A stretch of 64,000 bases of DNA from a virus. Location of the stretch: positions 46,458 to 110,457 of IMG/VR virus record IMGVR_UViG_3300033149_001257, one strand, 5' to 3'. This document shows, in pieces, positions 4,392 through 64,000 of the stretch. The notes beneath the pieces were generated by a model. It ran no database searches. It had not been told where the DNA came from and saw nothing but the letters and a program-made list of their open reading frames with translations. How positions within the stretch are numbered: position 1 is the first letter of the stretch; each line of letters begins with the position of its first letter. The translations under genes were made by a program, and so were the position numbers.

Positions 4392-4518
4392 CTCGCCACG
4401 TCCTTTTCAGTTTATTTAGTTGGTCCCGGGATGCGTCAACAAACATCTCCAGGTTCTCTTGCGTTATTTCCAAGTCCTTCAAAAAGTGGTTCATCGCTTT
4501 AATCTGTTCTCTCGTCAT
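4363..4518 (-). CDS. Small helical protein before the endolysin
   Basis: 51 codons from the second of two closely spaced ATGs, since the GAGGTG box is 7-8 bases before it. The protein is strongly charged and helical (EQIKAMNHFLKDLEITQENL), with no membrane segment. The 3' end overlaps the endolysin start by 29 bases, so the two would be translationally coupled. Function unknown. Confidence 0.5.
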   Translation of the reverse strand: MTREQIKAMNHFLKDLEITQENLEMFVDASRDQLNKLKRTWRDVKKNQQHK

Positions 4519-4606
4519 CGGCATCCACCTCTTTTTTTCTAATCCTCACCTTTTTTAGAATTGCCAATACCGCGGTTATTAAAAACTTAATTAAAGTCTT
4601 ACTCAT
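4499..4606 (-). CDS. Short membrane-active-type peptide
   Basis: 35 codons. The ATG overlaps the stop of the previous gene as TAATG, the usual coupling in this genome. Residues 3-18 (TLIKFLITAVLAILKK) form an amphipathic or hydrophobic helix and the rest is basic then acidic. Its position directly upstream of the lysis genes would suit a lysis accessory peptide, but nothing proves translation. Confidence 0.4.
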   Translation of the reverse strand: MSKTLIKFLITAVLAILKKVRIRKKEVDADDERTD

Positions 4607-4911
4607 TACTGTATAAACAGTTGAAAATTAACTGCCACCTCGTTTGACCTTATGTATACCTTCGTTACGTCATCACAGGGGTCAGAGAAATCCTGTCCAC
4701 CATATAGCCTGCCCGCTACTGTAGTGCCTGCGTTAATTGACCATTCAAGCCAGAGAGCGGAATCTGATTCGGCATTCACAAATACCAGCGATTTGGCATC
4801 AAAGTCAATGTTTATTTCTATCCACGTTGTTCCATCTCCCACTGTTCTATGCGCCGTGTTTCTTTGGTCCGTATACATTCTGTTTTTCGTTCCTTTGGTC
4901 ACGTGCTCCAT
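4606..4911 (-). CDS. Small virion-associated protein, unknown
   Basis: 101 residues with an AAGGAGG box. It is rich in beta-type segments (WIEINIDFDAKSLVFVN, SALWLEWSINAGTTVAG) and resembles small jelly-roll or trimerisation domains found after tail fibres. It lies between the signal-peptide fibre gene and the lysis genes. No family is recognised; a minor tail or fibre-tip protein is the best guess from context. Confidence 0.55.
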   Translation of the reverse strand: MEHVTKGTKNRMYTDQRNTAHRTVGDGTTWIEINIDFDAKSLVFVNAESDSALWLEWSINAGTTVAGRLYGGQDFSDPCDDVTKVYIRSNEVAVNFQLFIQ

Positions 4912-30951: not shown

Positions 30952-31075
30952 GACACTCTCCGTGGCTAAAGCCGGGAGATTCTCGGGACTTCTATGAAGC
31001 CTTCCGAATGGCCTGCCCAGCCATTAAAATATTCATTGCTGCGTTGTGGTCACGACCTATCTCCAAACCACACCT
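30952..31075 (-). ncRNA. Right end and likely 3' part of the TnpB guide (omega) RNA
   Basis: In this family the guide RNA overlaps the tnpB 3' end and the right end. The sequence holds the stem CTCC...GGC-TAAA-GCC...GGGAG (30957-30980) right at the element edge and continues into the tnpB C-terminal codons. The guide would be read from flanking DNA, here about 30930-30951. Exact 5' end unknown. Confidence 0.5.
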
Positions 31076-32083
31076 ACACTTATGCACACGAACTGACAAT
31101 TCTTTTTTGACTATCTTTCCACACTTTGAGCACATCTGGGATGTGTTTTTGGCAGGAACCTCAATGACTTCTTTTCCAACTTCTTCCGCTTTGAAACGAA
31201 GTATATTGAAGAAATTAAACCAAGCAACATCCCTCATAGACCGATTGAGCTTTCTGAATGTTTTCCAACTGTGAAGTTTTTCTATACAGATTATGTCGTT
31301 CTCTTTAACCAACTTATTAGCAACTTTAAAATGAAAATCTCGTCTTTGGTTGGCAATCTTTTCGTGAACCTTAGCGACAAGCAACTTTGCCTTTTTTCTT
31401 CTACTGGAACCTCTCTTTTTACGAGAAAGCGCTTGTTGGCGCTCAGTCAGAACACTATCGGCCTCATTAAGAAATCGGGGATTATCTATGGAATTACCAT
31501 TAGAGTCGGTCAGAAAAGATTCACAGCCCACGTCAATACCGATAGTCTTGCCAGTTTTGGACAACGGTTTACCAGGAACATCTTTACAGGAAAAACAAGC
31601 AAACCATTTCCCGGCTGGGGTTTTGCGGATAGTTACGGTTTTAATTGCGCCCTCGGTAGGCCGAGAAAGTTTCATCTTGAACTTACCAATTTTATTAATA
31701 GTAAAGCACCTTCCGTTAAGTTTCCATCCACATTGTTTAAGTGTGAAAGAATCGTATCTTCCCATCCCCTTGAATCTCGGGAACCCAGCCTTTTCCCCGG
31801 ACTTAACTCTACGGAAAAAAGATTGGTATGATTTATTGAGACGCTCAGTCACGTCCTGGAGTGATTCACTTGGCACTTTTTTAAATTCGGGAAAACCTTT
31901 TTTCAGGTCGGAAAGCTGATTCGCTTGGTCATACCCGGAAATAAATTTCCCGTGACATTTCCAAGCATTTATTCTCTGCTCAAGGCAGAGATTATAAAGT
32001 ATTCTGCAAAGATTAAGAACTTCTTCGGTTTTGGTGAGAGTTTCTCGATTGGCATATATTCTATATTTAAAAGTCTTTTTCAT
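30992..32083 (-). CDS. tnpB: TnpB, RNA-guided nuclease of IS200/IS605 family
   Basis: 363 residues, normal for TnpB. RuvC residues are intact: D184 in GIDVG, E268 in ICIEKL, D345 in GRDHNAA. A four-Cys zinc motif lies between (C318, C321, C336, C338: MCSKCG and CRCG). TnpB is a guide-RNA-directed DNA nuclease that helps the element persist by cutting donor sites after excision. It overlaps tnpA by 4 bases and carries its likely guide RNA at its 3' end. Confidence 0.95.
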   Translation of the reverse strand: MKKTFKYRIYANRETLTKTEEVLNLCRILYNLCLEQRINAWKCHGKFISGYDQANQLSDLKKGFPEFKKVPSESLQDVTERLNKSYQSFFRRVKSGEKAGFPRFKGMGRYDSFTLKQCGWKLNGRCFTINKIGKFKMKLSRPTEGAIKTVTIRKTPAGKWFACFSCKDVPGKPLSKTGKTIGIDVGCESFLTDSNGNSIDNPRFLNEADSVLTERQQALSRKKRGSSRRKKAKLLVAKVHEKIANQRRDFHFKVANKLVKENDIICIEKLHSWKTFRKLNRSMRDVAWFNFFNILRFKAEEVGKEVIEVPAKNTSQMCSKCGKIVKKELSVRVHKCRCGLEIGRDHNAAMNILMAGQAIRKAS

Positions 32084-34586: not shown

Positions 34587-36374
34587 TTAAAATATAGTAT
34601 CTGCGATTCCACCGCTCATTACATCATCACCATCATCAGCGCCACCGTCGTCTGTTACCATGCAGGTCTTTTTAATTTCGCTGTCTACTTCGTCTTTAGC
34701 CAACAAGGTTTCATATACATCTATGGCAAATAAAGCATAAACAAAGCTCATGAAAGCATCGGTCTTGCCGTGTTGTTTAATATACTTGAATACCCCATTT
34801 TTAGTCTTCATTGGTAATCCACTTGCGTCCTTGGCTCTGCCTATATTGCCGGACTCCGCCTTTATGTCTTTAATCACGGACATTACCGCGGACTTGCCTG
34901 TTATGTCATATGCTCGTAAAGGAACAGACTGTCCATTCACTATTGTGAATTCTTCGTATTCTGATGGCAGCTTTATTCTCTCTTTTTCCATTCTTGCCTT
35001 GGCTATTGTGTGGATTTTGTCTACCAGGACATCATCCCCGAGCATTTTACCATAGGCCCTTTTTACTGTTTCGTTCCGGCTAACCCACAATAAGCAGTGG
35101 TGCCCCTCTTTATCCTCGTCATCCACTCTCAGCATGGGCGTTACTTCCTTTTCTATACCATTTACTGTTATTTTCTCAAGTTCAAGGCGCTCTGCTACCC
35201 AGTGTCCACCGCCCCCTGGGTCCATGGCGAGATATATGAAATTAAATGCCTTATCTGCCGTATGTATAATATCTGCCATTTCGTCCTCAGATATACCCCT
35301 CACCTTTATGGCATGTACCACGCAATCCTCTTTTGAGTTGGTTTTGTGGTATTTTATGACTGTTAATGTGAAGAAATCGCCTTTATTGTCATATCCTTTT
35401 GCTACATCGCATCCCCCGAAATACCTGTCTTTTTTGCTGCCTTTCAGCTCTATCTTTAAATATGGTACAAATAGTGGGAAAAACAGGGTTGATGGATATA
35501 CCTCGCTACCGCCCTCTACCCATTTGCCAAGCCATTCCATATCAAAAGAATCTTTGTCCATTATCTCTTTATCCATGGCTAATTGCGTTTGGTCTATTGT
35601 CCATAGGAATTCTTTTGAAACATGAGTATAATTTCTATTAAAATGGACTACAGACAACTCTCCCTTTTTTTCTTCCCTGTCAAACCATTCCACGCGCTTA
35701 TATGCGGCATTTAACTTGTAATTTGCCGAGGATTCATATATAATCTGGTTATCATAGACCATGTCCCCTGTTTTCTCAAACATAGGGCTCTTAACCTCTG
35801 TTACTATAGGGCCTATTACGTCCGTGAGTATCTTCTGGTCCGGGAAGAATGTCCATTCGTTCACTATGGCACCATTCCATCTCTGACTACGGAGCCGGAG
35901 GCCCTTCCCCCGGAGAATATATGGGGGTATCACGACGAATTCAGAGTTATTTGTGTACTTAATTGAGTGAATATCCGGACCATGGAACGGTTTAGCCTCA
36001 CTATTTGACGTTTTTCCCCTTATTTCTGCCTGATATACGGGGCATTTCTCAAACCACCTATCAACATATTTTACGAATATATCCTTAGCGCCACCGAATG
36101 TGTGTGAAATAAAGCCCCATTTCTGATTATCTATCAATATACACTTCATGTGTGCAATTAAGTAGTAAATAAAGGTTTTTGCGTTATCTCTACCGGAATC
36201 GTCCAGGACAAAGTGGGTTTTCCATGCGGCCTCAAATCGTTCTTTCTGATGCGGAGCGAATCCCTTCCCATACAGGGGGTCAAATATCGTCTGTGCGGCA
36301 TATATTGGGTCCTGTAGCATTTGCAGCTTAACCTCTGCCGTTAATATTGGCTTTGTGTTATTTCCACGAATCAT
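34587..36374 (-). CDS. terL: Terminase large subunit
   Basis: 595 residues from ATG 36374, the start with an AAAGGAC box; a start at 36410 has none. The N-terminal ATPase half holds the fold (SHTFGGAKDIFVKYVDRWF) and an Asp-rich nuclease half follows: GGCDVAKGYDNKGDFF and YLAMDPGGGG are typical of the RNase H-like domain metal sites. It cuts and packages DNA through the portal. A classical Walker A P-loop is not obvious and the motor motif may be atypical (DSGRDNAKTF near residue 58). Confidence 0.85.
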   Translation of the reverse strand: MIRGNNTKPILTAEVKLQMLQDPIYAAQTIFDPLYGKGFAPHQKERFEAAWKTHFVLDDSGRDNAKTFIYYLIAHMKCILIDNQKWGFISHTFGGAKDIFVKYVDRWFEKCPVYQAEIRGKTSNSEAKPFHGPDIHSIKYTNNSEFVVIPPYILRGKGLRLRSQRWNGAIVNEWTFFPDQKILTDVIGPIVTEVKSPMFEKTGDMVYDNQIIYESSANYKLNAAYKRVEWFDREEKKGELSVVHFNRNYTHVSKEFLWTIDQTQLAMDKEIMDKDSFDMEWLGKWVEGGSEVYPSTLFFPLFVPYLKIELKGSKKDRYFGGCDVAKGYDNKGDFFTLTVIKYHKTNSKEDCVVHAIKVRGISEDEMADIIHTADKAFNFIYLAMDPGGGGHWVAERLELEKITVNGIEKEVTPMLRVDDEDKEGHHCLLWVSRNETVKRAYGKMLGDDVLVDKIHTIAKARMEKERIKLPSEYEEFTIVNGQSVPLRAYDITGKSAVMSVIKDIKAESGNIGRAKDASGLPMKTKNGVFKYIKQHGKTDAFMSFVYALFAIDVYETLLAKDEVDSEIKKTCMVTDDGGADDGDDVMSGGIADTIF

Positions 36375-39189: not shown

Positions 39190-40293
39190 ATGAATCTGAA
39201 AATTGACAAACAGTTGTATGATTTGGTCCCACTTTTGACCGATGAGGAATATGCTGGTTTGGAGCAGAACTGTATCAAGAATGGCATAAGAGATTCTATT
39301 GTTATTTGGAAAGAAACAAAAGAGCCTGTTTATACGGTTATTGATGGCCATAATCGATATAAAATTGCTCAAAAGAATAAGTTGAAGTATGATACGGTTA
39401 TGGTTAATTTTGAATCAAAAGATGAGGCCAAGATATGGATTATTAATAATTGCTTAGATAGGCGCAATTTGAATGATGCTCAAAGAATTATGTTGGCTTT
39501 GAAAATGGATGATATTATAAAAGCAAAAGCAAAAACACAGCAAATTAGAAAACCCAAATCTGTTCCGACAATGTTGTCGGAACAAAAGCCAATAGAAACA
39601 AGGAGGGAAGTTGCAAAGATTGCTGGCACTGGACGGCTTGCGGTTGATAAAATGAGAACTATTTTGGATAAGGGTACTCCGGAGCAGAAAGAAAAAGTAT
39701 TGAGTGGGAAAAGCACAATTAGCGCAGTATCTCGCGACATAAAGAGGGTTGAAAAAAAAGAAGAAATTAAGCGTATCCCGCCATCAAAGCTCGAGGGTAA
39801 GTATAATGTTCTACTGGCAGATCCACCATGGCAATATGATATTACAAATACTGCCATTAGGGGTAATGCTGATGACCAATACCCCACAATGGATATAGAA
39901 AAAATAAAAGAGTTGCCTATTGAAAACATTACCCTTGATAATGCTGTCTTGTTTTTATGGACGACGTCCTCAATGATAAGAAAAGCATTTGATGTAATTG
40001 AGGCGTGGGGATTTGAGTTTAAGACTTCCATGGTGTGGGTTAAGGACCGTATAGGAACAGGTTTTTATGTGCGAAGTAAGCATGAGATATTATTAATAGG
40101 TGTTAAGGGAAGTTTTACCCCAATGACCACAAAGTTACCAGATAGCGCAATAATGGCAAAAAAGGAAAAGCATAGTAAAAAACCCGAAATATTTTATGAT
40201 ATAATAGAAAAAATGTATGCTGGACAAAAATACATAGAGTTGTTTGCCAGGAATGAGAGAGATGGTTGGGATTCGTGGGGAGAGGAAATATAA
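39190..40293 (+). CDS. ParB-like / MT-A70 adenine methyltransferase fusion
   Basis: 367 residues, AAAGGAG box. Residues ~1-110 are a ParB/sulfiredoxin-type domain (VIDGHNRYKIA at 50-60, LDRRNLNDAQR). Residues 205-360 are an MT-A70 domain with the catalytic DPPW at 211-214, GYWSSALP-like region replaced by ADDQYPTMDIEKI, and the C-terminal KPEIFYDIIEKM. It methylates N6 of adenine in DNA or RNA. The ParB-like half may guide it to specific sites. Its stop is directly followed by the ATG of a nuclease-like gene. Confidence 0.85.
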   Translation: MNLKIDKQLYDLVPLLTDEEYAGLEQNCIKNGIRDSIVIWKETKEPVYTVIDGHNRYKIAQKNKLKYDTVMVNFESKDEAKIWIINNCLDRRNLNDAQRIMLALKMDDIIKAKAKTQQIRKPKSVPTMLSEQKPIETRREVAKIAGTGRLAVDKMRTILDKGTPEQKEKVLSGKSTISAVSRDIKRVEKKEEIKRIPPSKLEGKYNVLLADPPWQYDITNTAIRGNADDQYPTMDIEKIKELPIENITLDNAVLFLWTTSSMIRKAFDVIEAWGFEFKTSMVWVKDRIGTGFYVRSKHEILLIGVKGSFTPMTTKLPDSAIMAKKEKHSKKPEIFYDIIEKMYAGQKYIELFARNERDGWDSWGEEI

Positions 40294-42431: not shown

Positions 42432-43460
42432 ATGCCAGATGCTAAAATATCGTTGGACCCTGGGATTTTTACTGAGGAAGTGTTTAGAGAGGCATCTTCT
42501 GAGAAGTTAGAGCCGTCGTGTGTTGTATGCTTCTATCTTTATTCTGCCGGGAATTCAGATTCAACAGGAGTCTTCGAACCTAAGATTTCCACCCTCACAT
42601 ATAACGCATTACCGGGTAAGGTATCTCAAGATGGTATGAAAATATATAAATATTTATTAGACAATAATAAGTATCTGGAGTTCATAGCATCAAATGGTAA
42701 AAGATATACCTACATCCCAGCATATCTTAAAATAAACACTCTTAATCACCCGAGGAAACCTATTTTACCATTCCCCCCTAAAGATTGGCTATTGGATGCC
42801 CATTACGCCATCGCAAAGAAGTGGGGAATCGACCTGGATAAAATGAAAACCAGAAAACCTCAGAAAGAACTGACAATTTTTGATGATGATAATATGGGGA
42901 ATGGCGCAGAAGGGAATGGGAAAAAAGATACTCCTGTTGCGGAAAAAGCTGTGGAAAATAAAGACACTGTTGTGCCTGAAAAAAAGGAAAGCGTGCCAGA
43001 AAAGCCTGATGAAAAGAAAGAAAGTCCGTCGGTAAAAGAAGAAAAGAATCCCATGGATAATACGAATGAAATAATTGATGCGATAGTGTCATTGTGGAAT
43101 AAAACAAATCTAAAACATGTCACTAAGATTACCGATACAAGAAAATCTAAAATAAAAACAAGGTTGAAAGAAAAAGAATTTATTGATGGGTGGGAAACTG
43201 CAATCTTGAAAATGTCGGAATCCAATCTGTGCCTCGAGGCCGGATGGGCCACAATGGACTTCCTTATTGATAATTCTAATAATTACATTAAGGTTTTGGA
43301 AGGTAAATACGATAATCCGGGGGTCCGTAAGGTTGAATTGAGTGCCAATAAAAGACCTGACATAAAAGACTATGGTAATTTATCTGACCCTCGTATGCGC
43401 GTTAAGGCGTATCAGGAGGATATGAAGAAGTGGGTTGAAAAGTATGGAGATAAAAAGTGA
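42432..43460 (+). CDS. Replication initiator / helicase-loader-like protein (O-like)
   Basis: 342 residues, AAAAGGAG box. The N-terminal ~130 residues are a winged-helix-like block (SQDGMKIYKYLLDNNKYLEF); a Pro/Glu/Lys linker follows (residues 160-210). The C-terminal ~90 residues match the conserved block of phage replisome organiser proteins: IVSLWNKTNLKHVTKITDTR, KIKTRLKEKEFIDGWE, FLIDNSNNYIKVLEGKY. It sits directly before an iteron array (43469-43534) and the dnaB gene, the classic O-ori-P layout. Confidence 0.8.
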   Translation: MPDAKISLDPGIFTEEVFREASSEKLEPSCVVCFYLYSAGNSDSTGVFEPKISTLTYNALPGKVSQDGMKIYKYLLDNNKYLEFIASNGKRYTYIPAYLKINTLNHPRKPILPFPPKDWLLDAHYAIAKKWGIDLDKMKTRKPQKELTIFDDDNMGNGAEGNGKKDTPVAEKAVENKDTVVPEKKESVPEKPDEKKESPSVKEEKNPMDNTNEIIDAIVSLWNKTNLKHVTKITDTRKSKIKTRLKEKEFIDGWETAILKMSESNLCLEAGWATMDFLIDNSNNYIKVLEGKYDNPGVRKVELSANKRPDIKDYGNLSDPRMRVKAYQEDMKKWVEKYGDKK

Positions 43461-43468
43461 TGAATTAC

Positions 43469-43534
43469 GGTAAGTCTACGGTTATACTACGTGAAGGCTA
43501 CCGTGGTGATACGGTAAACTACTCGCAGTCTACA
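43469..43534 (+). repeat. 11-bp iteron array A (candidate replication origin)
   Basis: Six units of about 11 bases, each ending in TAC and mostly CTAC: TAC begins at 43477, 43488, 43499, 43510, 43520, 43531, i.e. steps of 11, 11, 11, 10, 11. The third step, GTGAAGGCTAC, is identical in the second array at 63228. The array lies directly 3' of the initiator gene and before dnaB. Confidence 0.75.
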
Positions 43535-43560
43535 CGAAGGTCGCGTTGTAGTAAGTAGAA

Positions 43561-43640
43561 TATCTAGAGTAGAATTATTATAATAGGCTGTTATAGATAG
43601 TATTAGTATTAGTATAAAAGAGTTATAGTATGTCAAGAAA
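43561..43640 (+). other. AT-rich segment (candidate unwinding element)
   Basis: Almost only A and T with short AGTATT direct repeats, between the iterons and dnaB. Such a segment next to iterons is where melting would start. Confidence 0.55.
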
Positions 43641-43660
43641 ATCGCAGAAAGGACTTGGAA

Positions 43661-45004
43661 ATGGACGATTTCACAAAGGTACCCCCACAGAATGCTGAAG
43701 CCGAAAGGTCGTTGCTTGGTGCAATGATGATAGAAGGCGATGCGATATCTACTGCTTTGGACATTGTTACTAAAGACGATTTTTATGATAATAATAATGG
43801 CGTGATATTTACTGCTATTAAAAATCTTCATCTTAAAAATGCTCCGGTTGATATGGTTACAGTTTCTGACCTCTTAAAGAAAGAAGGTACATTCGATAGT
43901 GTAGGGGGTGCCACTTACCTTGTGGATACCATAGACACCGTATCTACTGCTGTGAATATAGATTACTACTGTAAAATAGTTAAAGAGAAGTCTATACTCA
44001 GGAACAATATAAAACTGGCGAGTAATATTATCCAGCAGTGTTATTCCGGGTTAGATCACCAAGAAATATTCAATGGCGTGCAAAAGGAATATGAATCAAT
44101 ATTTAGTATAGACGAAAAAACGGAACATAACTTAGTTATGGCTACGAGCGATGATTTTCTTCGTGAATACCAGGATGTTCTTGATAAACGACACGAGATG
44201 TTTAAAGACGGCCCTGAGTTTCCATCGGGATTCCGGGATTTAGATAAACTGTTGCAGGTTGGATTTCTTAGAGGCCAAATCGCCACTATTGGAGCGCGGC
44301 CGAGTGTTGGGAAGACGGCTTTGTGTATAAATCTCATATCTAATTTTCTGAAAAAAAAGAAAAGGACATTGATATTTACTACGGAGATGACCCGACATAA
44401 TGTTTTTGATAGGGTGCTTTCTATGAATTATGGAGTTAATGGGTACGACCTCCTTATGGGAAGGGTGGATAAAAAAGTATCAGATGCTATAAACTCTTTT
44501 AGGGAAGATTTTTTTGAGAGAGAGTTCTTTATCTGCGACATACCTGAACCCACGTCCAGGGACATTGAGGACATAATTGTTAAAGTTAAACCCGATGTGT
44601 TTATATTTGACTATTTCAATAGGGCCATTACTGCGAATATGGATAAACGCGCCATTGAATTGGAGATGATAATAAACAAAATGCAGACACTGGCGCTACG
44701 GTATAATTGTGCCGGCATAGTAGCCGCCCAGCTTAATAGAGAGTATGAGAAAAGTAAGTCGGCGGAACCTCTAATGTCACACCTTAAAGACACCGGTGGA
44801 TTAGAGCAGGTATCATCGCTGATTATATGTTTAGCCAGGCTTGCTCCTGAAACAAGTGACGAGGCAGATGAGATGTTTGCTAAGGGTACGGAAAAAATAA
44901 AACTATGGATACTTAAAAACAGGTTTGGTGAAATAGGAACGGTGGAGTTAAATTTCAATGGCAGTAGGTTAAGGTTTGAGGATTTACCAGAAAAACACTT
45001 TTAA
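43661..45004 (+). CDS. dnaB: Replicative helicase DnaB
   Basis: 447 residues from ATG 43661 (AAAGGA with 7 bases spacing; a TTG 6 bases earlier is also in frame). N-domain with NAEAERSLLGAMM; Walker A GARPSVGKTAL near residue 210; Walker B region DVFIFDYF; late motif HLKDTGGLEQVSSLI. It unwinds DNA at the phage origin and works with the O-like initiator upstream. Confidence 0.9.
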   Translation: MDDFTKVPPQNAEAERSLLGAMMIEGDAISTALDIVTKDDFYDNNNGVIFTAIKNLHLKNAPVDMVTVSDLLKKEGTFDSVGGATYLVDTIDTVSTAVNIDYYCKIVKEKSILRNNIKLASNIIQQCYSGLDHQEIFNGVQKEYESIFSIDEKTEHNLVMATSDDFLREYQDVLDKRHEMFKDGPEFPSGFRDLDKLLQVGFLRGQIATIGARPSVGKTALCINLISNFLKKKKRTLIFTTEMTRHNVFDRVLSMNYGVNGYDLLMGRVDKKVSDAINSFREDFFEREFFICDIPEPTSRDIEDIIVKVKPDVFIFDYFNRAITANMDKRAIELEMIINKMQTLALRYNCAGIVAAQLNREYEKSKSAEPLMSHLKDTGGLEQVSSLIICLARLAPETSDEADEMFAKGTEKIKLWILKNRFGEIGTVELNFNGSRLRFEDLPEKHF

Positions 45005-45014
45005 GGGAGGATTT

Positions 45015-45587
45015 ATGAAAAAAGAGTATGGCTATGGCGAAAAGTATTTTGAGGGCAAGAGAAGGTACTACAGTGTCAGGAAGATGGGGTTGAGGATTAA
45101 GGTCATCCGCGTAAAGAAGTCAATTTATGAAATGCTCAAAATGGATAAATTGTATATCCAGATGAATTGGGCGGTGAATGAGTATTTCAATGTGACTCAC
45201 CTGGAACAGATAAGAAGGCAGAAATGTATGGACGTGGAAAAGATGAATGGGCCAGCGCAGTCGGGAGTTGAGGTTGTTGTGAAGGTGGGAATGTGGGAGA
45301 GAATTAAAAAGTTTTTCAAAAAAATCTTTAAAGGGGGAATTGAAATGAAAAATCAGAAAGGATTTTCATTAATTGAGCTTATGTTGGTGGTGGTCATTCT
45401 GGGGTCTATAGCGTTCCTTGCTATTGGGGCATGGACAGATAGAACATTGGAATTCTGGTTGTCTTTTTTTAAGGGGGAGGCCGTAAGTGTTCCATTTATT
45501 CTAAGTGGAATATTAAGTGTTGTTCTTAATGTCATCGCAGTTGTAATAAATATTATATCTGAAATAGCCAGAATATTTATTGCATAA
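45015..45587 (+). CDS. Early protein fused to a type IV prepilin-like domain
   Basis: 190 residues from ATG 45015 (AAGGGAGG). The N-terminal ~110 residues are basic and unrecognised (KKEYGYGEKYFEGKRRYYSV). The last 80 residues carry a perfect prepilin signal (KG-FSLIE with Gly -1, Phe +1, Glu +5) and a hydrophobic helix, then a second membrane segment (FILSGILSVVLNVIAVVIN). An internal ATG at 45345 has its own AGGGGG box and could produce the pilin-like part alone. Confidence 0.6.
   Translation: MKKEYGYGEKYFEGKRRYYSVRKMGLRIKVIRVKKSIYEMLKMDKLYIQMNWAVNEYFNVTHLEQIRRQKCMDVEKMNGPAQSGVEVVVKVGMWERIKKFFKKIFKGGIEMKNQKGFSLIELMLVVVILGSIAFLAIGAWTDRTLEFWLSFFKGEAVSVPFILSGILSVVLNVIAVVINIISEIARIFIA
45345..45587 (+). 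CDS. Pilin-like protein from internal start
   Basis: 80 residues from ATG 45345 with AAAGGGGGAATTGAA before it. Prepilin peptidase signal MKNQKG|FSLIEL followed by a ~20-residue hydrophobic helix as in type IV pilins and pseudopilins. No disulfide-bonded head domain is seen; after residue 45 there is a second membrane stretch. Could insert into or jam host pilus machinery. Confidence 0.5.
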   Translation: MKNQKGFSLIELMLVVVILGSIAFLAIGAWTDRTLEFWLSFFKGEAVSVPFILSGILSVVLNVIAVVINIISEIARIFIA

Positions 45588-60737: not shown

Positions 60738-61219
60738 AGGTATATGAAGAAGATGTCAGGCAGAGCCTTATAGCATATCTGAAAAGCCAGGGCCATACAG
60801 AAATCGGTACAGAAATACTTCTTGAAGATGATTACCGGTTCGTTGATGTAGTATATGTAGATGAAAAGAGGAGGTTTATCTGCATTGAAGTTAAACTCAC
60901 AGACTGGCGTAAGGTCATAGAACAGGCCCAGCGTTGCATTAAGTATACTCCCTTGGCATATATTGCCATGCCTACCCCGGAAAGCCCTAAAATCAAAGAT
61001 ACAATATCAACCGCCACACATCGCGCCGGGCTGGGCCTGTACTGGTACAATCCTGATGGATCATGGACCCTACAATACAATCCCAAAGAAAACACAGGGG
61101 AACCCAAGAAGGACATTAAGTATTTCAATCAGCAATTAAAGCGCTCTTTCTATAGACACATGCAAATAACATTCATGTCCCTTGTAATAAACCACGGAAC
61201 GGAGGATATCCCAATATGA
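60734..61219 (+). CDS. PD-(D/E)XK nuclease-like protein (VRR/restriction type)
   Basis: 161 residues from ATG 60734. RFVDVVYVDEKRRFICIEVKL gives D38, E52, K54: a clear nuclease core. QAQRCIKYTPLAYIAMP next resembles small restriction-type proteins. May cut DNA at host or competing-phage sequences, or process recombination intermediates. Overlaps the neighbours as ATGA. Confidence 0.75.
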   Translation: MKVYEEDVRQSLIAYLKSQGHTEIGTEILLEDDYRFVDVVYVDEKRRFICIEVKLTDWRKVIEQAQRCIKYTPLAYIAMPTPESPKIKDTISTATHRAGLGLYWYNPDGSWTLQYNPKENTGEPKKDIKYFNQQLKRSFYRHMQITFMSLVINHGTEDIPI

Positions 61220-61878
61220 AAATGAGAATATTAATAGCTTGTGAAGAAAGCCAGGCGGTATGTATAGAGTTTCGCAAGATGGGGCATGAGGCGTTTAGTT
61301 GTGATGTCCAGGATTGCAGTGGTGGGCACCCCGAATGGCATATAAAAGGTGATGTTCTTGATGTTATAGACAGACAGACAGGCAGATGGGGATTAATGAT
61401 TGCCTTCCCGCCATGTACTTATCTAACAGTCACGGGCAATAAATGGTTTAAGTCGGAGTTTAAGGATAGATTCCCAACAAGAGAGCAAGACAGAATAGAT
61501 GCTATAAACTTTTTCATGAAACTTGTCAATGCACCGATAAATAAAATATGCGTAGAAAATCCGGTTGGCATAATGAGTAGGGTATATAGAAAACCAGACC
61601 AGATAATACAGCCATACTATTTTGGTGATAAAGCACAAAAGACAACTTGCTTATGGCTTAAAAACTTACCCCTATTACAGCATTTATCGGAAGACGATTG
61701 GTTTGGTAAAAAAACTCATACAAAAAAGGGGGGAATGTATACATATAAGAATGGCAGAAAAGACCCCATGTGGCACGTGGAAACCATGAAACTGCCACCG
61801 CATGAAAGAACGAAAGCGAGAAGTAAGACATTTCCGGGGATAGCAAAAGCAATGGCCGAACAATGGAATAAAATATAG
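61216..61878 (+). CDS. C5-cytosine methyltransferase-like protein (short)
   Basis: 220 residues. Dcm-type pieces: RILIACEESQAVCIEFRKMG (SAM loop), catalytic Cys in FPPCTY (PPC at 65-67), VENPVG near 115 (ENV-like motif IV). Much shorter than full C5 methylases and lacks a target domain; widely found in phages under this name. Activity uncertain. Confidence 0.7.
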   Translation: MKMRILIACEESQAVCIEFRKMGHEAFSCDVQDCSGGHPEWHIKGDVLDVIDRQTGRWGLMIAFPPCTYLTVTGNKWFKSEFKDRFPTREQDRIDAINFFMKLVNAPINKICVENPVGIMSRVYRKPDQIIQPYYFGDKAQKTTCLWLKNLPLLQHLSEDDWFGKKTHTKKGGMYTYKNGRKDPMWHVETMKLPPHERTKARSKTFPGIAKAMAEQWNKI

Positions 61879-61886
61879 GAGAAAAT

Positions 61887-62060
61887 ATGAATCTGATATA
61901 CAGGATTATTAAATGGTATTACTGGACCCGGCACAGAAAGAGTTGCGCGTATTTCGGAGATTACGGCTGTATGCCATACCAATGCGGTGATGATTTCTGC
62001 CCAATGCTATGCAAGGCCTGTAAAAGAGCCACTCCAAAAAAGAAGAAACCGCGAAAATAA
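61887..62060 (+). CDS. Small cysteine-rich protein, last gene of the operon
   Basis: 57 codons, AGGAG box. Six Cys in 26 residues (CAYFGDYGCMPYQCGDDFC, then CKAC) and a basic end; zinc or disulfide bound. No clear terminator follows. Confidence 0.5.
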   Translation: MNLIYRIIKWYYWTRHRKSCAYFGDYGCMPYQCGDDFCPMLCKACKRATPKKKKPRK

Positions 62061-62340
62061 AACAGCAGCGCCTTTTCTAACTACCAATCAAATACTATTA
62101 TCTACTAATTCGGTATTAGTGTATACATAATGTCACTAAAAGTACATACCATTTGTGACACACATTCCGCTTTTTCCTCAACAATAATATAGCATTATCT
62201 CCATTTCATATCTCAGTAAACAACCCACCCCCACCACAGAATCAATTCCTTACTCAAAAAACCCCCTCACTCACGCATATTTCTCAACAAACAACCCGGG
62301 CCCCATACTCAGCAGTAGTACCCATAATGGGGACATCTGT
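62061..62340. other. Non-coding start of the right-end region
   Basis: No supported gene. A hairpin ACTAAT-TCGGT-ATTAGT at 62104-62122 may be a weak terminator for the operon, and TGTCAC/GTGACA half-sites sit at 62131-62160. Confidence 0.4.
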
Positions 62341-62375
62341 TTCCCTACATAATCATATACAATTATATGTACTGG

Positions 62376-62469
62376 ATTATATCTTAAAGGGTATAATATC
62401 TCAACCATAAGACAAGATTATACCTTATGTGATATAATGGCAATCATTTTATATCCTTTGGGGTATAAT
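62376..62469. promoter_or_regulatory. Three phased operator-like palindromes
   Basis: Sites at 62376-62397, 62417-62438 and 62448-62469, each ATTATA (TTTATA in the third) N10 TATAAT with spacers TCTTAAAGGG, CCTTATGTGA and TCCTTTGGGG. Centres are 41 and 31 bases apart, about 4 and 3 helical turns, so bound proteins would lie on one face. Probable repressor cluster. Confidence 0.5.
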
Positions 62470-62479
62470 ATAGGGCACA

Positions 62480-63214
62480 TTCCCCAGAACCACCCTACAA
62501 ATAAGACCATATGCTATGCTTGCAGTACAAACCCAGTAGGTGCCAAAACGTCACCAACTGAAGCCAGCCACACACCGGCCCCATATAAGAATAAAGGCCA
62601 TTCCCATATACACGGCCCCTAAAATCCAAGGGGACCCCAGGTACAGCGCCACACATCCAATCTCAAAAAAGGGTACCCCCCCCATCATGGATATATACAA
62701 TTTGTACCCACCCTGCCACACATCCGGTTATCGGCAATTAAACGCCACATCCTCAAAATACGAAACCCTATCGTTCACCAATCCCCAATGTTCACCATTT
62801 AATGAACATTCCACACACATGAACACCTATCATGCCACGCGTGCAATCGGTTCATTCCATACCCAATATGTCAAGCCACAATGGACAATCCCGCTCCAGA
62901 ATAAACCGCCACACACTCGGCCAGCCTCACATCCAGGGAACCACATAGAAATGGACCTTCACCAACTTCTGCCACATATCGGCAAATGTCCACACACCCA
63001 AAAAAGAGCCACATCCTCGCAGGCCCCGGCTCTCCATCCAACCTCACACCACCCACTCAAAAATCAGGCAACCCCAGAACCAAAACCCTGACCAAAACAC
63101 GAAAGAGGTCTTACCCTACAGACCGCCCTTCCCCAGCAAATACCCACCACTCATTCGTGAAACCCCAACCCCAACCCAACTCCAAAACTACCACCCCAAA
63201 ACCAACCACCGAAA
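62480..63214. other. C-rich non-coding segment with recurring GCCACA motif
   Basis: The plus strand is C/A-rich and G-poor. GCCACA or a close variant with following CATC/TATC occurs about nine times between 62570 and 63040. Long frames here are low-complexity and lack ribosome binding sites. Could be binding sites for a packaging or replication protein. Confidence 0.45.
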
Positions 63215-63227
63215 CATAACCGTAGGC

Positions 63228-63307
63228 TACGTGTGGGATACGTGAAGGCTACCGTAATGTCACCGTAGCTTACACGTAATCTACTCGTAGACCAACCGTA
63301 ACCATAC
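63228..63307 (+). repeat. 11-bp iteron array B
   Basis: TAC (once CAC) starts at 63228, 63239, 63250, 63261, 63271, 63282 and then degenerates: steps 11, 11, 11, 10, 11, the same as array A at 43477. The unit GTGAAGGCTAC is identical and at the same place in both arrays. Likely a second binding cluster for the initiator. Confidence 0.7.
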
Positions 63308-64000
63308 CGTACCCCTCCACCAAGTCCTCTATCAAGTCCAAAACCTAGTCCATTTTTTTATATTGAGGTCCTGCTGTTGACGTTAGCATTTTTTGTGCCA
63401 TGATGTAAAGTCCACCCCTGCTTAATATGTATATTCTATATAGCATTTACGTTGATGGTTTACTGTTGCGAAAATATACATATTAGCAAGAGGTAATAAA
63501 GGCGGTCTGTATGGAACAGGTCTGGGCGTGATTTTTATAACAGGATTTTTATTTTTTAATAAAATTATGAGATTGTAAACTCAATTTTATAATTCAATAT
63601 TTTTGTTTTTATGGTATAAAGTCAATTATTTATATTGGATTGTCTGTATTAGTTACTGGATTATAATTATTTGGAGTTATAATTGTTTGGATTTTCCTTT
63701 ATTGGTTGCCGGATATTGACTGGATTATGGTTTAATTCGGTGATTTTACTATTAGAATGTCAATAATCCCTACTTGTTTTGTTTGTTCTGTTCTGTTATG
63801 TATAGTATGATTATAAGTTACTTACTCCTTACAGTTTTTATTATTGGATGATGGGCGATCCTCTTCCTCTTTTTGGTTGGTTGGGGTGGGCTTGCCTGTT
63901 CAGTATAATAATCTATATCATGTATTGGTTGCATGGTTCAGGGCTTTATTGTATGCTTGCCTTTAATATTCAGGGCTTGCGAGCTTGCCGGATTGTTTCC
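63308..64000. other. AT/GT-rich end, no gene seen
   Basis: The plus strand becomes G/T-rich after about 63360. A near-exact direct repeat lies at 63661-63675 and 63677-63691 (TTATAATT(A/G)TTTGGA). No ORF of use; no convincing promoter. Confidence 0.4.

What the first reader, a model, noticed from the sequence alone, without database searches (positions are those of the whole stretch)
43469..43534. Matching 11-bp iteron arrays at 43.5 kb and 63.2 kb
Two clusters of TAC-ended 11-mers have the same step series (11, 11, 11, 10, 11) and share an identical unit, GTGAAGGCTAC, at the same place. One lies between an O-like initiator and dnaB beside an AT-rich segment, the layout of a phage origin. The other lies ~19.7 kb away in a non-coding end just before a base-composition switch. 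This suggests an origin plus a second site for the same protein, such as an alternative origin, looping partner or copy-control array.
Basis: seen in the sequence. Interest (0 to 1): 0.8.

Follow-up and report, generated by a model that had tools for sequence, protein, structure and literature searches.

The report
Twin phage replication-origin arrays, SPP1-like
This phage carries two matching sets of short DNA repeats, spaced one per turn of the helix, that look like two landing sites for its own replication-starting protein; the layout is already known from the Bacillus phage SPP1 and here turns up in an unrelated ~110-kb phage.

Summary
The 110,457-base record holds exactly two arrays of a quasi-palindromic core, TACSGTA, repeated every 11 bp. 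Array 1 (43466-43541) scores 10.0 and array 2 (~63218-63318) scores 11.3; the next best site scores 3.9 and randomised genomes reach at most 4.0. Array 1 lies between an O-like initiator gene and dnaB, beside one of the most AT-rich stretches of the record. Array 2 lies 19.7 kb away in a gene-poor stretch of ~1.9 kb, at the right end of the record's largest reversal of strand asymmetry.

In public phage contigs, ACSGT cores at 11-bp steps often lie inside replication-initiator genes. A close SPP1 relative has the same 11-bp step in its initiator gene, with shared words in a distant intergenic region. SPP1's initiator gp38 is reported to bind both of its origins (PMC6316719). One other phage, G028, also pairs an initiator-gene array with a distant one.

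Best reading: an oriL-like origin (array 1) plus a second initiator-binding origin or fork-control site (array 2), a new member of the SPP1 twin-origin kind. Binding, start sites and the role of array 2 are untested; array 2 could even be the main start site.

The parts
42432..43460 (+). O-like replication initiator, 342 residues, presumed binder of both arrays
   Evidence: PHROGs: phrog_10469 DnaD-like 2.9e-12, phrog_345 O-like 1.4e-10, phrog_16167 1.3e-7; no Pfam hit
43466..43541 (+). Array 1: seven TAC-initial units of ~11 bp, core TACSGTA
43552..43640 (+). AT-rich stretch with TAG/TAT repeats, candidate unwinding element
   Evidence: 79% AT over 80 bp from 43552, 99.7th percentile of the record; TAGTAT repeats read
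43655..45004 (+). DnaB-type replicative helicase (TTG start at 43655; ATG at 43661)
   Evidence: Pfam DnaB_C 1.4e-42 and DnaB 1.5e-32; phrog_19 1.9e-89
63218..63318 (-). Array 2: nine or so ~11-bp units, same core; six exact 11-bp TAC steps on the minus strand; + strand collinear reading also possible
61900..63352 (.). Segment left of array 2 with reversed strand asymmetry (C+A-rich on +); the record-wide keto skew falls from 60892 to 63352
63531..63610 (.). AT-rich stretch right of array 2 (88% AT over 80 bp, the top of the record)

Best explanation
Both arrays are binding platforms for the phage's own O-like initiator. Each ~7-bp quasi-palindromic core sits on the same face of the helix, one turn apart, so initiator molecules line up side by side. 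At array 1 this complex melts the adjacent AT-rich TAG/TAT-repeat DNA and recruits the DnaB encoded next door, starting theta replication (oriL-like). Array 2 is the distal oriR-like site: a second start site, or a protein-bound barrier that stalls a fork and helps the switch to late concatemer replication, as proposed for SPP1. Shown: the arrays, their uniqueness, gene order, AT-rich DNA, and the association of such arrays with initiator genes elsewhere. Inferred: binding, melting, helicase loading, direction, and the role of array 2.
For: Only two such arrays in 110 kb. Array 1 sits between an O-like initiator and dnaB beside a 99.7th-percentile AT-rich stretch. Four ACSGT cores at 11-bp steps hit 90 viral stretches; about two thirds lie inside an ORF, and of 55 such ORFs scanned 27 match one replication-initiation family, phrog_1408. 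The nearest fetched homologues of the window initiator, L007 and L013, were fetched for their arrays and carry them inside the gene. SPP1 relative 049ML003 has GACA at exact 11-bp steps in its organizer gene and shares 17 ten-base words with the 4468-4804 intergenic region. SPP1 gp38 is reported to bind two origins 12-13 kb apart. G028 has a comparable pair.
Against: No binding or replication data. No relative of this phage was found, so conservation of array 2 is untested. A protein homologue found without the array pattern, L278, shows no clear 11-bp array in its gene. Of 26 array-bearing records searched whole, only G028 has a distant second array, so a second site is not a usual part of this origin class. 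Array 2 has no AT-rich stretch as close as array 1 does, and no switch of strand asymmetry marks array 1.
Confidence: 0.65

Rival explanations
1. Array 2 is the main start of replication, and array 1 is a secondary or regulatory site (initiator autoregulation, or pairing of two initiator-bound arrays to limit firing).
For: The largest fall of cumulative keto skew in the record (546, next 208) ends at 63352, just right of array 2. At fourfold sites the + strand is keto-rich in both + genes (0.532) and - genes (0.537), as mostly one-way replication leaving array 2 rightwards would give. Array 2 has the better phasing.
Against: Gene order and the AT-rich stretch favour array 1. One-way replication from array 1 also gives a uniformly keto-rich + strand. 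The asymmetry is indirect, and a leftward transcript could cause the short reversal.
Confidence: 0.2
2. Array 2 binds the initiator but acts as an operator: bound protein controls transcription in the non-coding region or of nearby genes, with no replication role.
For: It lies in non-coding DNA; in G028 the second array lies directly upstream of a small ORF.
Against: No convincing gene starts right beside array 2; a sigma54-like site at 63400 is within chance expectation; nine units is long for an operator.
Confidence: 0.1
3. The arrays are partition (centromere) sites, like the 11-bp iterons of ParR/parC systems.
For: 11-bp iterons are known at plasmid centromeres (own knowledge); the MT-A70 methyltransferase at 39190-40293 matches a ParB-like phage family over part of its length.
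Against: No ParA-type ATPase (PF13614) in the record (ParM and TubZ were not searched). The neighbours of array 1 are the initiator and dnaB. Similar arrays elsewhere lie in initiator genes.
Confidence: 0.03
4. Array 2 is a non-functional copy of array 1 left by a duplication.
For: A 17-bp identity and a collinear step series suggest a common source.
Against: Array 2 has the better phasing of the two, with six uninterrupted 11-bp steps on one strand; a decaying relic should be the worse copy. It coincides with the strand-asymmetry switch.
Confidence: 0.05

Closest known systems
Bacillus phage SPP1 oriL and oriR with the replisome organizer gp38 (PMC6316719, PMC3485210)
   Same: Two distant arrays of short direct repeats with AT-rich DNA, one at the initiator gene beside a DnaB-type helicase, one intergenic; in a close SPP1 relative the organizer-gene repeats run at exact 11-bp steps. 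The relative's organizer and the window protein share a PHROG family, phrog_345 (1.2e-6 and 1.4e-10).
   Different: Core TACSGTA instead of GACA-type repeats. Array 1 lies just after the initiator gene, not inside it, and no helicase-loader gene lies between it and dnaB. The sites are 19.7 kb apart; array 2 is next to early genes, whereas SPP1 oriR interrupts the late region. Binding is measured in SPP1 only.
Phage lambda ori (O iterons inside gene O)
   Same: O-like initiator gene with adjacent iterons and AT-rich DNA.
   Different: Lambda has four 18-bp iterons 20-24 bp apart inside gene O; here ~11-bp units lie outside the gene and a second array exists.
11-bp phased arrays in phage initiator genes (L006-L095; G028 with a second array)
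   Same: Same core and step; mostly in or near initiator genes; G028 also has a distant second array.
   Different: Known here only from sequence; most have a single site.
DnaA-trio element of bacterial oriC
   Same: TAG/TAT triplet repeats beside the initiator sites of array 1.
   Different: A resemblance only; DnaA boxes were not looked for and the initiator is a phage protein.

Membership tests
SPP1-type twin phage origin (oriL/oriR) | Two distant arrays of the same direct repeat in one phage genome | tested here: met
   Exactly two arrays, 11.3 and 10.0 against 3.9 for the next
SPP1-type twin phage origin (oriL/oriR) | One array in or at the initiator gene, with a DnaB-family helicase gene close by | tested here: met
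   Array 1 between the O-like ORF and dnaB; just outside the initiator gene, not inside as in SPP1
SPP1-type twin phage origin (oriL/oriR) | AT-rich unwinding element beside each array | tested here: inconclusive
   Array 1: 79% AT directly to its right (99.7th percentile). Array 2: 72% from ~100 bp away, 88% from ~210 bp away
SPP1-type twin phage origin (oriL/oriR) | The phage initiator binds both arrays | not testable with these tools
   Needs footprinting
SPP1-type twin phage origin (oriL/oriR) | Theta replication from one site; switch to sigma replication linked to the other | not testable with these tools
   Strand asymmetry fits mostly one-way replication but does not name the start
Lambda-type ori | Iterons of ~18 bp inside gene O | tested here: not met
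   Units of ~11 bp, outside the ORF; lambda annotation
ParR/parC-type centromere | Partition ATPase or filament gene beside the array | tested here: not met
   No PF13614 match in the record; neighbours of array 1 are the initiator and dnaB. ParM and TubZ were not searched
DnaA-trio origin | DnaA boxes next to a triplet tract | not tested
   Only TAG/TAT repeats were seen

The most novel reading that the evidence does not exclude
Array 2, not the array beside the initiator gene, is the main origin: replication leaves it rightwards around the whole genome and only ~1.3-2.5 kb leftwards, perhaps opened or primed by a leftward G+U-rich transcript, while array 1 titrates initiator or pairs with array 2.
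Probability: 0.18. Interest if true: 0.65.

Novelty: new member of a known kind. Interest (0 to 1): 0.5.

Why it matters
Twin initiator sites are well documented in SPP1, where the second site is thought to trigger the switch from circle to concatemer replication. A second, unrelated phage with the same layout, plus a third candidate (G028), makes that idea testable by comparison. The searches also suggest that short palindromic cores phased at 10-11 bp mark many phage initiator genes, so origins might be annotated from sequence alone.

Tried and rejected
Relatives: exact-peptide scans found no relative of the initiator, DnaB or terminase in viral contigs or of the initiator in genome contigs. 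tblastn against phage records found nothing for the initiator, one weak match for the terminase and only generic DnaBs. Conservation of array 2 could not be tested. A profile of three initiators added one homologue, L278, without a clear array.

Control scans: raw counts do not separate array classes. ACSGT at 11 bp gave 90 stretches; AGSCT at 11 bp gave 58, several of them also in initiator-type genes; ACSGT at 12 bp gave more than 120, mostly coding repeats, with no initiator family matching more than 3 of 63 ORFs; ACSGT at 10 bp gave 28, with initiator families matching up to 6 of 15 ORFs. So 11 bp is common but not exclusive, and gene context is what discriminates. A 12-bp step is a weak control because it is a multiple of three.

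Selection: the 55 ORFs scanned leave out ten array-holding ORFs of at least 100 residues that I set aside by eye before seeing any annotation (L009, L025, L039, L056 twice, L058, L059, L074 twice, L076); counted against all 65 the share for phrog_1408 is at least 27/65. Some loci are near-identical (for example L010, L038, L040, L054, L082), so the counts are not independent.

Flank repeats: six-base repeats beside the arrays are only modestly enriched (best lag-6 match 0.54 against 0.45; at least 0.7 in 15% against 0% of controls), and in the window array 1 itself is not above 0.57.

A 16-base sigma54-like word occurs at 63400(-) and record 1210(+), but five such matches were seen where shuffles give 0-4, so it is not evidence. 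The single-sequence AlphaFold model of the initiator is unusable (mean pLDDT 38.7). No solved relative by sequence, no Rfam match. SPP1 itself was not held, so the relative 049ML003 was used.

Literature: seven searches aimed at earlier descriptions of such phage repeats or origins listed nothing that, by title and abstract, describes 11-bp phased arrays as a phage-wide feature; only the SPP1 papers and one staphylococcal phage paper were opened. The library lacks most subscription journals, including the 1994 and 1997 SPP1 origin papers, so absence here is weak evidence.

Full report
What was checked. The window is positions 46458-110457 of a 110,457-base virus record, so its right end is the record's end. 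The two arrays exist as described. Array 1 has seven TAC starts from 43466 to 43531 with steps 11,11,11,11,10,11. Array 2 has, on the minus strand, six TACs at exact 11-bp steps from 63311 to 63256, and eight phased CGTs on the + strand. A scan with the quasi-palindrome TACSGTA and a phase model scores them 10.0 and 11.3; the next best site scores 3.9 and 12 Markov genomes reach at most 4.0.

Because the unit is nearly its own reverse complement, the inverted alignment is slightly better (52 of 76 identical against 49 of 76; background best 36). Whether array 2 is a direct or an inverted copy is undecided.

Surroundings of array 1. It starts six bases after the last base of a 342-residue ORF that matches O-like and DnaD-like initiator families, and it lies before a DnaB-type helicase. 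The DNA directly to its right is 79% AT over 80 bp, the 99.7th percentile of the record, with TAGTAT repeats. This is the usual anatomy of a phage origin (established knowledge of lambda-type and SPP1-type origins).

Surroundings of array 2. The last ~1.9 kb of the record has one listed ORF of at least 80 residues, a + strand GTG-start ORF at 62540-63091, which was not examined further; the stretch is treated here as mostly non-coding. Left of the array the + strand is C+A-rich, right of it G+T-rich. The cumulative keto skew of the record falls by 546 between 60892 and 63352, against 208 for the next largest fall. At fourfold-degenerate sites the + strand is keto-rich both where genes are on + (0.532, bootstrap interval 0.511-0.552) and where they are on - (0.537, 0.519-0.555), which codon preference alone would not give; between the arrays the value is 0.515 and not distinguishable from 0.5. 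This fits mostly one-way replication with the + strand leading and a switch at array 2. It is indirect, and leftward transcription could cause the short reversal.

Family-wide evidence. Four ACSGT cores at 11-bp steps hit 90 stretches of viral contigs. In about two thirds the array lies inside an ORF, mostly of 250-350 residues. Of 55 such ORFs scanned, 27 match phrog_1408 and about as many match each of phrog_12556 and phrog_16167, all named replication initiation protein; the families overlap and the union was not computed. Ten further array-holding ORFs had been set aside by eye before annotation, so the share is at least 27 of 65, and some loci are near-duplicates. Controls show that the class is wider than ACSGT and wider than 11 bp, while the 12-bp pattern mostly finds coding repeats. 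The nearest fetched homologues of the window initiator are the array-bearing L007 and L013 (phmmer 1.5e-6 and 1.4e-5; families). This comparison was made among loci mostly fetched by the array pattern, so it is not a test free of selection; a homologue found by protein profile alone, L278, lacks a clear array.

Precedent. [quoted passage not shown] PMC3485210). In the SPP1 relative 049ML003 the repeats inside the organizer gene run at exact 11-bp steps (GACA ending at 35952), and the 4468-4804 intergenic region shares 17 ten-base words with that gene. I take that region to be oriR from its position and shared words; the record does not annotate it.

How common are twins. In 26 array-bearing records searched whole with up to two mismatches, only G028 shows a distant second array. 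Its first array is in an initiator gene; its second lies directly upstream of a small ORF 36 kb away on the contig and might be an operator. The other 25 show one site, or clusters close together, so the search does not throw up spurious second arrays.

Judgement. That array 1 is an origin bound by the neighbouring initiator is likely (about 0.85). That array 2 binds the same protein is likely (about 0.75). That it acts as an oriR-like second origin or fork barrier is plausible and unproven. The combined statement gets 0.65. The finding is a new member of a known kind, with an open question about which array starts replication.

Noticed in passing
62572-63015, minus strand: TGTGGC occurs eight times within ~450 bases on the minus strand, often as GATGTGTGGC, against 24 on that strand in the whole record.
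   Followed up: partly
62375-62469: Three 23-base repeats of the type GATTATATCTTAAAGGGTATAAT, also forming inverted repeats, in the non-coding stretch left of array 2.
   Followed up: no
63114-63130 and 63498-63514: A 17-base inverted repeat (88%) flanks array 2 on both sides; chance not assessed.
   Followed up: no
63157-63205, minus strand: G-rich tract GTTGGGTTGGGGTTGGGG next to array 2 that could form a four-stranded structure (read).
   Followed up: no
30992-32083: TnpB/OrfB-type IS605 transposase gene amid the late genes.
   Followed up: no
L003:7351-8472 and L004:14840-15751: The phage encodes its own DNA polymerase sliding clamp (DNA_pol3_beta domains) and a tyrosine integrase.
   Followed up: no
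39190-40293: MT-A70 methyltransferase whose N-terminal part matches a ParB-like phage family.
   Followed up: no
44976-45587: ORF with a pilin-type N-terminal methylation motif in its middle, right after dnaB; possibly two genes.
   Followed up: no
L098, L099, L132, L141, L149: AGSCT arrays at 11-bp steps outside called ORFs, flanked on both sides by ATTACT-type repeats: a second core type of what looks like the same origin class.
   Followed up: partly
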